From: Komagataeibacter intermedius TF2
Lineage (GTDB): Bacteria; Pseudomonadota; Alphaproteobacteria; Acetobacterales; Acetobacteraceae
Reading direction: 5' to 3'
Assembly: GCF_000964425.1 (NCBI RefSeq)
Contig: NZ_BANF01000010.1
Span: 124,001 to 188,000, forward strand
DNA: 64,000 nt
The translations under genes and the position numbers were made by a program. The notes under the pieces were generated by a model, which saw nothing but the letters and a program-made list of their open reading frames with translations, did not search any database and had not been told where the DNA came from. Position 1 is the first letter of the stretch. Every line of letters starts with the position of its first letter. This document shows positions 17,778-21,352 of this stretch, piece by piece.

Positions 17778-17924
17778 CTATATATGCGTAAGGCTGAGCG
17801 CATACAGGATGGCCGCCAGCGCCGAAAGCGTAATCGCCACGGCGCGGATGCGGCCCTTGTGCCGACGCGCCGCCTCCTGCGCTTCCATGTGCGGCGTCAC
17901 CTGAACCGTTGTCGCCTGATCCAT
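17778..17924 (-). CDS. Small CoxF-like single-pass membrane protein
   Basis: A 48-residue protein starting MDQATTVQ. A polar, charged N-terminal half (EAQEAARRHKGRIR) is followed by one membrane segment, AVAITLSALAAILYALSL. This layout and its place directly after ctaB match the small CoxF-type protein found between ctaB and ctaG in many alphaproteobacterial cytochrome c oxidase operons. It begins 34 bases past the ctaB stop on the same strand. ctaG and subunit III, which would normally follow, are missing. The function of CoxF is not well known; sequence alone cannot prove this assignment. Confidence 0.6.
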   Translation of the reverse strand: MDQATTVQVTPHMEAQEAARRHKGRIRAVAITLSALAAILYALSLTHI

Positions 17925-17958: not shown

Positions 17959-18918
17959 TCAGTGGGCGATAAAGGCATGGTCAGCCAGCAGGCCAAGGAA
18001 CAGGAAAAACAGGTAAGCCAGCGAATAGCGGAAGGACCGACGTGCCGGCCCGTCACCCGTCAGACTGACACCATTGGCGTCCTGCCGGTCACGCAGCACC
18101 CCGATGGCGCAGTAAATGAACCCTGCCCCCAGAACGGTCGCCACCACCGTGTACAGCCAGCCCGCCAGGTGCATGAAGGATGGCACCAGCGACACAGCGG
18201 TCAGGATGATCGTGTACCACAGGATCTGCCACCGCGTATGCCGTGCCCCACGCACCACCGGCAGCATGGGAATCCCGGCACGTCCGTAATCCTTGCAGGC
18301 ATATAGCGACAGCGACCAGAAATGCGGTGGTGTCCACAGGAAGATGATGCCGAACATCACCACCGGCATCACCGCCATGGACCCTGTCGCCGCCGCCCAT
18401 CCGATCATGGGCGGGAATGCACCCGCCGCACCACCGATCACGATGTTCTGCGGTGTCGAACGCTTGAGCCACATGGTGTAGATGACGGCATAGAAGAAAA
18501 TGGAAAACGCAAGGATACCCGCCGCAAGGGCATTGGTGGCCAGCCACATCAGGATGACGGACGCAACCGACAGGCCAATCCCATACCCCAGCGCCGCATC
18601 CGGGCTGACACGCCCGTTGGGAATGGGCCGTGTCACCGTGCGCTTCATCACCGCGTCGATATCGCGGTCATACCACATGTTGATCGCACCCGCCGCACCA
18701 GACGCCATGCACACGCACAGGATGCTGACAGCCGCCACCAGCGGGTTCAGCGGCCCCGGCGCCATGTACAGGCCCGCAGCCCCTGTGAACACCACCAGCG
18801 AGATGACGCGCGGCTTGAGCAGCAGCAGCCAGTCCCGCGCTTCCGTCCCGACGCGGGTGGCGTCATAGGCAATGGGGGTAGGTTGCGCCGCATCGGGCGT
18901 TGTGACTGCGCCGCTCAT
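17959..18918 (-). CDS. ctaB: Protoheme IX farnesyltransferase (heme O synthase) CtaB/CyoE
   Basis: A protein of 319 residues in the UbiA prenyltransferase fold. It adds a farnesyl group to protoheme to make heme O, needed by bo3-type oxidases and as precursor of heme A. The first aspartate motif is NMWYDRDIDAVMKRT, followed by RPIPNGRVSP; the second polar region includes WSLSLYACKDYGRAGIPMLP. Eight to nine hydrophobic helices are visible. The start lies 3 bases after the stop of the degenerate subunit I gene, so the two are tightly coupled. In an acetic acid bacterium the likely customer is the quinol oxidase encoded elsewhere. All key motifs look intact. Confidence 0.95.
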   Translation of the reverse strand: MSGAVTTPDAAQPTPIAYDATRVGTEARDWLLLLKPRVISLVVFTGAAGLYMAPGPLNPLVAAVSILCVCMASGAAGAINMWYDRDIDAVMKRTVTRPIPNGRVSPDAALGYGIGLSVASVILMWLATNALAAGILAFSIFFYAVIYTMWLKRSTPQNIVIGGAAGAFPPMIGWAAATGSMAVMPVVMFGIIFLWTPPHFWSLSLYACKDYGRAGIPMLPVVRGARHTRWQILWYTIILTAVSLVPSFMHLAGWLYTVVATVLGAGFIYCAIGVLRDRQDANGVSLTGDGPARRSFRYSLAYLFFLFLGLLADHAFIAH

Positions 18919-18921
18919 GCT

Positions 18922-20286
18922 TCATGCCTCTCCACGCGTGGGGGATGCAGACTGCCATTCAGGCGTCCGCGCCCCCGGTCCCCAGTAATTGGCAGGCAGC
19001 GAGGTGCCGGGCTGCATGCCAACACGCACGACGATCCCGGCAAACACGATTACGGACAGTCCCATCAGCACCGCGCCCATAACACCCGGCAGGCCATGGA
19101 ACGCCATAAGCGACAGGACCGTTCCCCCCACCGTCAACCCGAAATGGACGCGGCTGGCGCCAACCGGGGCCACATGGCCCATCATCTTGCCAATCCAGTA
19201 ATAGAAACCGCCGAACAGCGCGAACATGGCGGCATACAGCGTGGCCGCATGCACGTCGGCCATGCCGCCGGGCAGCAGCGACATGCCGGACCCCGCCAGC
19301 AGCAGCGCCACGAACCCCGCCGCCCATTCCATGGGGACCGAGGCACGGACATGCCCCACCCGCACCGTGCGCGCCCAGGCCACAAGGACCGCCAGCACCG
19401 GCAGGACAATCAGCCCAAGCTGGACAATGGCCGCAGGTGCCGCCATGCGGGCCAGACCGCCATGCAGCAGATCATGCACCCACACCGAACCGCCACCGAC
19501 CGACATGACGACCAGCGCACCCAGCACCAGGCGCGGCATCTGCAATGGCGCACCGGAAAATGTCTCGATGATCTGGGAAACGATCCCGATGGATGGCAGC
19601 AGCAGCAGCGCGATCTCGGGCCCGGCGAAAACATGCAGCAGGCCATCGACCTGCCCTGACATGTCGCCCCCCGCCAGTATGATCCGCGTCAGGCCACCGG
19701 CCAGAACGGGCATGACCATGACAACCATCATGGCCGTCAGCCCCTGCGCCCAGACGAATATGGGCATGTCACGCAGGCGCTGCTCCATCGGTCCCATGTT
19801 CAGGACGGTCGCGACCATATTGATGGCCTGCAGCAGCATGCCAAGGCTCCACCCCATCAGGGCGAACAGGGAAACCTGCGCGGGCACGGTTGGGGACAGC
19901 CCCACCAGCACGGCCACGAAACTGGCGGCGACCAGTCCCCACCCCACCAGCGCCATGCGCGGGAACGCCAGCGCGCGCGCGCGCAGCAGCAGGGGCACGA
20001 ACCAGTTGCCAAATCCGCCGAACAGGGCGGGCAGCGCACAGAAGAACACCATCATCATGCCATGGCGGCGGCCAATGCGCCCGGCGGCACCGGCGATATC
20101 GCCCCCGGCCCATGCATCGGTCAGCGCCTGGGGCAGCAGGCCGACCTGAAGGCCCACGGCCAGCAGGCCACCGACCATTCCCGCCACAATCGCCATGACA
20201 AGGTACAGCATGCCAATCGTCCTGTAGCCACAGGACCCGTCAGCCTTGCGCGCCTCACCTGCCCCGAACCGTGTGCCTGTGGGCAT
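18922..20286 (-). CDS. Degenerate cytochrome c oxidase subunit I homologue, predicted catalytically dead
   Basis: A protein of 454 residues, open throughout, about 12 hydrophobic helices. The heme-copper oxidase subunit I fold is clear: PALFGGFGNWFVP, LAFPRM, MPVLAGGLTRI, FYYWIGKMMG and the tail NYW...EW..SP. By recalled alignment to Paracoccus subunit I, the low-spin heme pair is kept (H75 in RRHGMMM; H346 in ADVHA). Of the copper-B histidines, one is G222 (AGPEIA replaces GHPEVY), one is kept (H271), one is D272. The heme a3 histidine is D344, the cross-link tyrosine A226, the K-channel lysine V300 and the D-channel aspartate A105. The MPRRY segment near the C-terminus is deleted. E224 remains. 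I chose the ATG at 20286 for its AGGGAG site; TTG 20331 and ATG 20325 are alternatives. Role unknown. Confidence 0.85.
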   Translation of the reverse strand: MPTGTRFGAGEARKADGSCGYRTIGMLYLVMAIVAGMVGGLLAVGLQVGLLPQALTDAWAGGDIAGAAGRIGRRHGMMMVFFCALPALFGGFGNWFVPLLLRARALAFPRMALVGWGLVAASFVAVLVGLSPTVPAQVSLFALMGWSLGMLLQAINMVATVLNMGPMEQRLRDMPIFVWAQGLTAMMVVMVMPVLAGGLTRIILAGGDMSGQVDGLLHVFAGPEIALLLLPSIGIVSQIIETFSGAPLQMPRLVLGALVVMSVGGGSVWVHDLLHGGLARMAAPAAIVQLGLIVLPVLAVLVAWARTVRVGHVRASVPMEWAAGFVALLLAGSGMSLLPGGMADVHAATLYAAMFALFGGFYYWIGKMMGHVAPVGASRVHFGLTVGGTVLSLMAFHGLPGVMGAVLMGLSVIVFAGIVVRVGMQPGTSLPANYWGPGARTPEWQSASPTRGEA

Positions 20287-20459: not shown

Positions 20460-21173
20460 TTACGCCACCATGGGGCTGGCGGAACTGTCGGCCTCACGCG
20501 GCAGCGTGACCAGCGTGAACAGCCCGGCAGGGGGCACCGGCTGCAGCGTCGCGCGCCGCAGGTCAGTAGGCGGCAGCAGGGATTCGATGGCGAAATCCGG
20601 ATGCCAGCCCAGCGAATGCGACGCGCGCGCCATGCCGCGCTCAACCGCCAGCCGCACGCCACCCTGCGCCAGGAAGTGATTGACGAACAGGATATGCCCG
20701 CCCGGCCTGACCACGCGCTTGAGTTCCGACAGCAGCGCACGCGGATGCGGCACGACGGAGGCAACAAACATCGCCACCGCGATGTCGAACGTGCCATCGG
20801 CAAACTTCGTTGCCTCGGCATCCATTTCCAGCAGGTCGTCCACATTGGACAGGCGCAGCCGCCTTACGCGCTGGCGCGCACGTTCCAGCATGTCACCCGA
20901 CAGGTCGATGCCGGTAATATGCTTGTCCTTGCGGTAATAAGGCAGCGCAAGGCCCGTGCCCACGCCCACTTCCAGCACACGCGTGCCCGGCAGGCCGTTG
21001 ACGGCTTCGACCGCCCGCTTGCGCCCGAAGGCGGAAATGCTGCCGAATACGGCGTCATACACGCTGGCCCAGCGACGATACGCCGCCTTGACCGCCGCCG
21101 CGTCCAGCGCGGATTTGGGAGAAGGTATTTCCACGACTTTTTCAGCGGCCTCATCGTGCAGAACGTCACTCAT
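20460..21173 (-). CDS. pmtA: Phosphatidylethanolamine N-methyltransferase, PmtA type
   Basis: A SAM-dependent methyltransferase of 237 residues. The N-terminal AYRRWASVYDAVFG is characteristic of the Rhodobacter-type PmtA family, followed by SAM motif I VLEVGVGTGLALPYY, the acidic TGIDLSGDML, and post-motif KRVVRPGGHILFVNH. The enzyme methylates phosphatidylethanolamine to phosphatidylcholine at the inner membrane; a phospholipid methyltransferase gene of this kind is known from Acetobacter. I set the start at the ATG giving MSDVLHDEA; the frame extends upstream but that part looks non-coding. A related menaquinone/ubiquinone methyltransferase is the main alternative. Confidence 0.8.
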   Translation of the reverse strand: MSDVLHDEAAEKVVEIPSPKSALDAAAVKAAYRRWASVYDAVFGSISAFGRKRAVEAVNGLPGTRVLEVGVGTGLALPYYRKDKHITGIDLSGDMLERARQRVRRLRLSNVDDLLEMDAEATKFADGTFDIAVAMFVASVVPHPRALLSELKRVVRPGGHILFVNHFLAQGGVRLAVERGMARASHSLGWHPDFAIESLLPPTDLRRATLQPVPPAGLFTLVTLPREADSSASPMVA

Positions 21174-21331
21174 CAGGCTGCTCCCATGCCAAGGCCAAGG
21201 AAGACGGCGCATCCGGCCCGCTTCCGTGCTGCATCCGCCATGATCAAATCCGTCCCGTTCTGCTGCATTACAATTCCACCTGACCTGCCCACGCGCCATC
21301 CGGCCCGTGCAACCGTCTGCCATCCCTGTCC

Positions 21332-21352
21332 CATGCCATGCCACATGGCATG
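21332..21352. repeat. Perfect 9-base inverted repeat between gshB and pmtA
   Basis: CATGCCATG (21332-21340) and CATGGCATG (21344-21352) flank a 3-base loop, 47 bases past the gshB stop and 159 bases before pmtA. No T-run follows on the minus strand, so it is either a weak terminator or an operator/RNA hairpin. Confidence 0.4.

What the first reader, a model, noticed from the sequence alone, without database searches (positions are those of the whole stretch)
18922..20286. Intact but apparently dead heme-copper oxidase subunit I that keeps only the low-spin heme site
The frame is full-length, with the family fold and conserved tail NYW..EW..SP. By recalled alignment to aa3 subunit I, both low-spin heme histidines are kept (H75, H346). 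The binuclear centre is dismantled: one copper-B histidine replaced by glycine (G222), another by D272, the heme a3 histidine by D344, and the cross-link tyrosine by A226. Channel residues D and K are lost and the MPRRY segment is deleted. An unselected relic should have collected stops or frameshifts over 1.3 kb, and the losses would not spare the low-spin pair. This suggests a re-purposed membrane protein holding one b- or o-type heme: an electron carrier, a heme chaperone for CtaB next door, or a redox sensor.
Basis: partly seen in the sequence, partly recalled or inferred. Interest (0 to 1): 0.75.

Follow-up and report, generated by a model that had tools for sequence, protein, structure and literature searches.

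The report
One-heme ex-oxidase of vinegar bacteria
Acetic acid bacteria keep a former respiratory-enzyme subunit that has lost the parts needed to use oxygen but still has the seat for one heme, and it sits beside the gene that makes heme O, which suggests it now helps handle that heme.

Summary
Aligned to solved aa3 subunits I, both low-spin heme histidines are kept (H75, H346); two CuB histidines, the heme a3 histidine, the cross-link Tyr and the K-channel Lys are lost. It is no decaying relic: all 19 genomes of its genus hold one intact copy, omega about 0.09. In 144 genomes whose copies I read, H75 is His in 144 and H346 in all 143 complete copies; H284 is kept in 0, H419 in 2, Tyr288 and Lys362 in 0. 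Of 209 columns invariant in 34 aa3 proteins, only these two His and two Trp survive in all complete copies. Median periplasmic loop lengths sum to 26 residues against 102 in aa3; cytoplasmic loops are unchanged. ctaB lies directly downstream in 136 of 137 loci tested. Five acetous genomes without ctaB and bo3 lack it too; one genome (G001) has ctaB and bo3 without it. A 'deranged COX1' beside ctaB is in print, described as lacking all metal ligands; the kept bis-His site contradicts that. Best reading: a one-heme pseudo-subunit I working with CtaB in heme O handling. Heme binding is untested.

The parts
18922..20286 (-). pseudo-subunit I (ctaD-like), 454 aa, 12 TM helices; catalytic ligands lost, low-spin heme ligands kept
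20062..20064 (-). codon of H75 (low-spin heme ligand, R. sphaeroides H102), TM II
   Evidence: His in 144 of 144 homologues; CAT/CAC only in 19 Komagataeibacter
19249..19251 (-). codon of H346 (low-spin heme ligand, R. sphaeroides H421), TM X
   Evidence: His in 143 of 143 complete homologues; CAT/CAC only in 19 Komagataeibacter
19750..19752 (-). codon of W179, invariant
   Evidence: 143 of 143 complete homologues
19480..19482 (-). codon of W269, invariant
   Evidence: 143 of 143 complete homologues
19621..19623 (-). codon of G222 at the place of CuB ligand H284
   Evidence: His in 0 of 144 homologues
19471..19473 (-). codon of D272 at the place of CuB ligand H334
   Evidence: His in 10 of 144
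19255..19257 (-). codon of D344 at the place of heme a3 ligand H419
   Evidence: His in 2 of 144
17959..18918 (-). ctaB, heme O synthase, 3 bp behind the stop of the pseudo-subunit; the genome's only match over the heme O synthase cut-off
17778..17924 (-). 48-aa single-TM protein behind ctaB, like the short protein behind ctaB in intact aa3 operons
   Evidence: motif scans, loose
20460..21344 (-). methyltransferase (PmtA-like) upstream; in two intact aa3 loci ctaC lies between it and ctaD

Best explanation
It is a vertically inherited remnant of aa3 cytochrome oxidase subunit I that ceased to be an oxidase in acetic acid bacteria, which use the bo3 quinol oxidase, but stayed under selection as a membrane protein with one bis-His low-spin heme site. 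It works as the partner of the adjoining heme O synthase CtaB. Proposed mechanism: CtaB's product (heme O; heme B is possible) docks between H75 and H346 and is held there until it passes to CyoB. Axial ligation is kept, but loss of the segment with the propionate-clamping arginines and the shortened periplasmic loops would leave the heme more exchangeable than in an oxidase. Shown: intact frame, selection, selective retention of the two ligands, loss of the catalytic site, linkage to ctaB, co-loss with ctaB and bo3 in five genomes, no SURF1 or Cox11 match in the carriers searched. Inferred: heme binding, the kind of heme, contact with CtaB, hand-off.
For: 144 homologues: H75 144/144, H346 143/143, H284 0/144, H419 2/144, Y288 0/144, K362 0/144. 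Of 209 aa3-invariant columns only H75, H346, W179, W269 survive in all complete copies; median retention 0.20. On the tree of 78 complete copies these columns change 0 times, against a median of 15 and 21-24 for H284, H334, H419, K362. omega 0.092-0.094, ctaB 0.034-0.035. ctaB directly downstream on the same strand in 52 of 53, 20 of 20 and 64 of 64 loci (the miss, L184, ends at a contig edge). Five acetous genomes (G029, G116, G066, G070, G210) lack CyoB, a CtaB over cut-off and this gene together (tree). CtaA is missing from 32 of 57 carriers, so heme A is not required. SURF1 and Cox11 found in 0 of 46 carriers searched. Summed median loop lengths: periplasmic 26 against 102 in aa3, cytoplasmic 38 against 38.
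Against: No spectroscopy or structure with heme; conserved histidines are not proof of heme. G001 keeps ctaB beside the same neighbours and two CyoB but has no pseudo-subunit, so it is dispensable there. SURF1 and Cox11 are also missing from G001, G077 and G210, which lack the gene, so their absence is not specific. I recall that A. pasteurianus CtaB works when expressed in E. coli (Matsutani 2014, abstract recalled, paper not held), so the partner is not needed for CtaB catalysis. Co-inheritance with ctaB could partly reflect operon linkage. It evolves fast: omega is about 2.7 times that of ctaB, and 6 of 10 distant homologues tested fall below Pfam COX1's cut-off.
Confidence: 0.5

Rival explanations
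1. Structural stabiliser of CtaB (the published suggestion): the protein is kept only as a membrane scaffold for CtaB, and any heme is structural or absent.
For: Proposed in PMC10715153 section 16 (passage seen). Linkage to ctaB in 136 of 137 loci; co-loss in five genomes; cytoplasmic loops keep their length.
Against: A bare scaffold does not explain why, of 209 aa3-invariant positions, the two axial ligands and two Trp are the only ones that never change. A scaffold that itself needs a structural heme remains possible.
Confidence: 0.25
2. Electron-transfer or redox/heme-sensing cytochrome: the single heme passes electrons to or from quinol or CtaB, or reports redox or heme state.
For: Bis-His low-spin hemes are typical electron-transfer sites (general knowledge); the ligand pair is invariant.
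Against: Periplasmic loops, which in aa3 face subunit II and the electron donor (recalled), are shortened; no ctaC beside it in the 17 dead loci compared. Loss together with ctaB and bo3 is unexpected for an independent carrier or sensor.
Confidence: 0.12
3. It still assembles with other oxidase subunits, for example as an alternative or regulatory subunit of bo3.
For: COX1 fold kept; absent from the five acetous genomes without CyoB.
Against: About 58 kb from cyoB in this genome; periplasmic loops, which contact partner subunits in aa3 (recalled), are shortened.
Confidence: 0.07
4. Neutral relic carried along by translational coupling to ctaB.
For: Stop and start lie 3 bp apart here and overlap (ATGA) in several other genera; selection is weaker than on ctaB.
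Against: omega about 0.09; no in-frame stop in 19 of 19 congeners; both ligands kept in every copy read.
Confidence: 0.03

Closest known systems
Cytochrome aa3 subunit I (CtaD/COX1, type A heme-copper oxidase)
   Same: Fold, 12 helices, low-spin heme ligands, position before ctaB, C-terminal NYW..EW
   Different: CuB site and heme a3 ligand gone, no cross-link Tyr, no K-channel Lys, periplasmic loops cut, no ctaC beside it in the 17 dead loci compared, no Cox11 match in 46 carriers
'Deranged COX1-like protein' of Acetobacter beside ctaB (Matsutani 2014, not held; PMC10715153, passages seen)
   Same: Judging by its place before ctaB in Acetobacter, the same gene; A. pasteurianus ctaB and ctaD have neighbouring locus tags (PMC5158111, passage seen)
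   Different: Printed as lacking all metal-binding residues; here both low-spin ligands are present in every complete copy read, including Acetobacter ascendens (G169) and the five other genomes of its genus code
SURF1/Shy1 (heme handling for COX subunit I)
   Same: Proposed function only: membrane protein between heme synthase and oxidase
   Different: Other architecture (two TM segments around an extracytoplasmic domain; PMC9145763, passage seen); 0 of 46 carriers have it

Membership tests
Heme-copper oxidase subunit I (enzyme) | COX1 fold and sequence | tested here: met
Heme-copper oxidase subunit I (enzyme) | bis-His low-spin heme ligands | tested here: met
   H75, H346
Heme-copper oxidase subunit I (enzyme) | three CuB histidines | tested here: not met
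   H284 and H334 replaced, H333 kept in the window protein; H284 in 0, H333 in 51, H334 in 10 of 144
Heme-copper oxidase subunit I (enzyme) | heme a3 proximal histidine | tested here: not met
   D344; His in 2 of 144
Heme-copper oxidase subunit I (enzyme) | partner subunit II gene in the operon | tested here: not met
   ctaC lies between methyltransferase and ctaD in L049 and L050 and was not found in the 17 dead loci compared
NCBIfam CtaD equivalog TIGR02891 | score over 670.75 bits | tested here: not met
   143 bits
Pseudogene / decaying relic | stops or frameshifts, dN/dS near 1 | tested here: not met
   19 of 19 congeners intact, omega 0.092-0.094
Published 'deranged COX1' beside ctaB | position directly before ctaB | tested here: met
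   136 of 137 loci
Published 'deranged COX1' beside ctaB | lacks all conserved metal-binding residues | tested here: not met
   H102 144/144 and H421 143/143
Heme-binding cytochrome | bound heme | not testable with these tools
   needs protein and spectra
Heme chaperone / insertion factor | transfers heme to an oxidase | not testable with these tools
   needs biochemistry

The most novel reading that the evidence does not exclude
Acetic acid bacteria turned a whole oxidase subunit I into a dedicated heme O relay: a 12-helix, single-heme pseudo-oxidase that accepts heme O from CtaB at the former low-spin site and delivers it to the bo3 oxidase, in lineages without SURF1. I know of no other heme insertion factor made from an oxidase core; it would be a living snapshot of the hand-off from synthase to subunit I.
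Probability: 0.35. Interest if true: 0.87.

Novelty: new variant of a known kind. Interest (0 to 1): 0.72.

Why it matters
How heme is inserted into subunit I, and by which players, is described as unresolved (PMC5249081, introduction passage seen). This gene is a natural separation-of-function case: catalysis gone, low-spin site kept in every complete copy read, tied to the heme O synthase. Two point mutations in a culturable acetic acid bacterium would test whether a subunit I can have a second role in heme handling. It also contradicts a printed statement that the protein lacks all metal ligands.

Tried and rejected
Decay: rejected by intact frames and dN/dS. Shifted catalytic ligands: none seen in the alignments. 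Heme A as the necessary ligand: not supported, CtaA is missing from 32 of 57 carriers. Strict need of ctaB or bo3 for the protein: contradicted by G001. Four more genomes have ctaB but not the gene: G007 and G031 hold aa3-operon genes behind a ctaB cut at a contig edge; G077 has a ctaB next to a second oxidase operon; G050 has a distant ctaB (38% identity) with no aa3-type neighbour recognised. Flags of in-frame stops: G251 (one TGA), G079 (one TGA) and G214 (one TAA). I take them as matches running past the frame ends, because the frames themselves are open over 445, 453 and 439 codons; not examined further. Coordinates of the AlphaFold model are not available to scripts, so the His-His distance was not measured. 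The tree was built with the ligand columns included. The small gene behind ctaB was sought by loose motif scans without a control (74 of 91 loci, several of them plainly unrelated ORFs; 62 of 78). Literature: nine searches listed no paper that I recognised as describing the retained bis-His site; only listings and the passages cited were seen, most subscription papers are not held, and Matsutani 2014 is not.

Dropped rows: L184 (G009, contig edge) counts for H102 but cannot be scored for H421. L048 was dropped as a duplicate of L144, and L364 as a repeat of L061. Of the 143 genomes over the threshold, G006 and G453 have frames of 541 and 521 aa; G006 is an intact aa3 locus, G453 was set aside by frame length alone, its ligands unread. 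The other 141, with G009, G056 and G251, make the 144.

Full report

SETTING. Behind it, 3 bp away, lies ctaB, heme O synthase, then a 48-aa single-TM protein. A similar short protein follows ctaB in intact aa3 operons and, by loose motif scans, in many dead loci. Upstream is a PmtA-like methyltransferase. In two intact aa3 loci (L049, L050) the order is methyltransferase-ctaC-ctaD-ctaB; in the 17 dead loci compared with them (the window, L034-L048, L051) ctaC was not found. So the gene is the positional orthologue of aa3 subunit I. The window's genome has one more COX1-family gene, CyoB of the bo3 oxidase, one match over the heme O synthase cut-off, a CtaA, and no SURF1 or Cox11 match.

DISTRIBUTION. 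A family-wide search (299 genomes), a genus search (19 genomes) and an order-level profile search (395 genomes) show short homologues (mostly 400-480 codons). In one search, 143 of 395 genomes pass E 1e-78. Two of these (G006, G453) have frames of 541 and 521 aa; the other 141 are the short form. Named examples: Komagataeibacter xylinus and K. nataicola, Novacetimonas hansenii and N. cocois, and four Gluconacetobacter species; Acetobacter ascendens (G169: a contig of 49380 bases whose first 8000 are identical to a plasmid record of the same length); Swingsia samuiensis (G250, likewise). The other genera carry codes only, and 'acetous' is my label for the clade of carriers. Of ten distant homologues tested, six fall below Pfam COX1's cut-off and two of these show no COX1 match at all.

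THE KEY COUNT. I read the ligand positions in 144 genomes, of which 143 copies are complete (L184 ends at a contig edge). H102: His in 144 of 144. H421: His in 143 of 143. H284 (CuB): 0 of 144. H333: 51. H334: 10. H419 (heme a3): 2. Y288: 0. K362: 0. R481 and R482: 0, a gap in 143. E286 still Glu: 79. Of 209 columns invariant in 34 aa3 controls, four are kept in all complete copies: H75, H346, W179, W269; median retention is 0.20. If any four of the 209 were equally likely to be the survivors, both low-spin ligands would be among them with probability about 3e-4 (my arithmetic, ignoring relatedness). On a FastTree of 78 complete copies from 19 genus codes, which form one clade apart from aa3 (support 1.0), the two ligand columns change 0 times; the median for the 209 columns is 15, and H284, H334, H419 and K362 change 21 to 24 times. 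The other ten zero-change columns are gaps in all 78 copies.

SELECTION. In 19 Komagataeibacter genomes the frame has no stop. Codon-model omega is 0.092-0.094, against 0.034-0.035 for ctaB of the same genomes; Nei-Gojobori medians are 0.175 and 0.079 over 171 pairs. The two ligand codons vary only between CAT and CAC. The gene is constrained, though less than its neighbour.

SHAPE CHANGE. Summed median loop lengths over 78 copies: periplasmic side 26 residues against 102 in 34 aa3 proteins, cytoplasmic side 38 against 38 (sides are recalled from aa3 topology). The shortened loops include the segment of the Mg-site histidine and the MPRRY segment whose arginines hold heme propionates (recalled). 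A site with both axial ligands but without that clamp would hold heme more loosely; this is inference.

LINKAGE AND CO-LOSS. ctaB lies directly downstream on the same strand in 52 of 53 loci (duplicate and aa3 rows left out; the miss, L184, is cut at a contig end), 20 of 20 and 64 of 64. Of 70 genomes that I chose, mostly acetous, 57 carry the gene. Eight lack a CtaB over cut-off (G002, G029, G034, G066, G070, G076, G116, G210); all eight lack the gene and none shows CyoB. G034 is only 82% complete. A UvrB tree places five of them among the carriers: G210 beside Acetobacter (99/98), and G070, G066, G029 and G116 with small-genome relatives, so two or three separate losses. Against the reading: G001 has ctaB beside the same methyltransferase and two CyoB but no pseudo-subunit. 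It groups with genus g57 in the UvrB tree (88/77) and just outside all 78 carrier CtaBs in a CtaB tree, so it is either a later loss or an early split. G007, G031, G050 and G077 also have ctaB without the gene, in other settings. CtaA is missing from 32 of 57 carriers, that is from 12 of 20 carrier genera, so the site does not depend on heme A. SURF1 and Cox11 each occur in 4 of 53 genomes searched and in 0 of the 46 carriers among them; the four (G006, G007, G111, G143) have aa3-operon genes. G001, G077 and G210, non-carriers, lack both as well.

WHAT IT MOST LIKELY DOES. Selection for both ligands, inheritance with the heme O synthase, loss together with bo3, and lack of SURF1 fit a one-heme membrane protein that serves heme O handling: holding the product of CtaB and passing it on. 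In an ordinary oxidase, subunit I is the end acceptor of CtaB's pathway; here the acceptor role would have outlived the catalytic one. That the bo3 operon of acetic acid bacteria was acquired horizontally and lacks its own heme O synthase is recalled from Matsutani 2014 and fits one CtaB over cut-off in each of 62 genomes. I give about 0.5 to a heme-binding partner of CtaB, 0.25 to a scaffold without a heme hand-off role, and less to electron carrier, sensor or bo3 subunit.

WHAT WAS KNOWN. [quoted passage not shown] it cites Matsutani 2014 (not held). PMC5158111 (passage seen) lists ctaB and ctaD, with neighbouring locus tags, as conserved in three A. pasteurianus genomes. So the gene is known. 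The invariant bis-His site, the selection, the loop asymmetry and the co-loss pattern I did not find in print in nine searches (listings and cited passages only). Hence: new variant of a known kind.

Six (not five) of ten homologues fall below the Pfam cut-off; loop shortening in the window protein itself concerns four, not five, of six periplasmic loops; the small-gene claim was toned down; the numbers for CtaA, SURF1 and Cox11 are now given per carrier.

Noticed in passing
window 17778-17924 (minus): A 48-aa single-TM protein behind ctaB resembles the short protein behind ctaB in intact aa3 operons and recurs in many acetous loci (loose motif scans), so three genes of the old operon may survive together.
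   Followed up: partly
L257 (G001:C7:146000-153500): Methyltransferase and ctaB are neighbours with the pseudo-subunit missing, while two CyoB are in the genome.
   Followed up: partly
G029, G116, G066, G070, G210: Acetous genomes of 1.7-2.1 Mb that lack CyoB, a heme O synthase over cut-off and the pseudo-subunit together; which oxidase they use was not looked at.
   Followed up: partly
L181, L233, L234, L236, L237, L243, L244 (genus g33); L045, L239: Stray catalytic histidines: all seven g33 copies have His at H334; L045 and L239 have His at H419.
   Followed up: no
L020/L040 (G042) and L350 (G405): The open frame of the pseudo-subunit runs on upstream to 751 and 686 codons; a fusion or only an open frame.
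   Followed up: no
G060:C1:2924882, G073:C23:171830, G142:C77:9726: Some relatives have a further COX1-family gene (frames of 551-577 aa) besides CyoB and the pseudo-subunit; the window's genome showed none.
   Followed up: no
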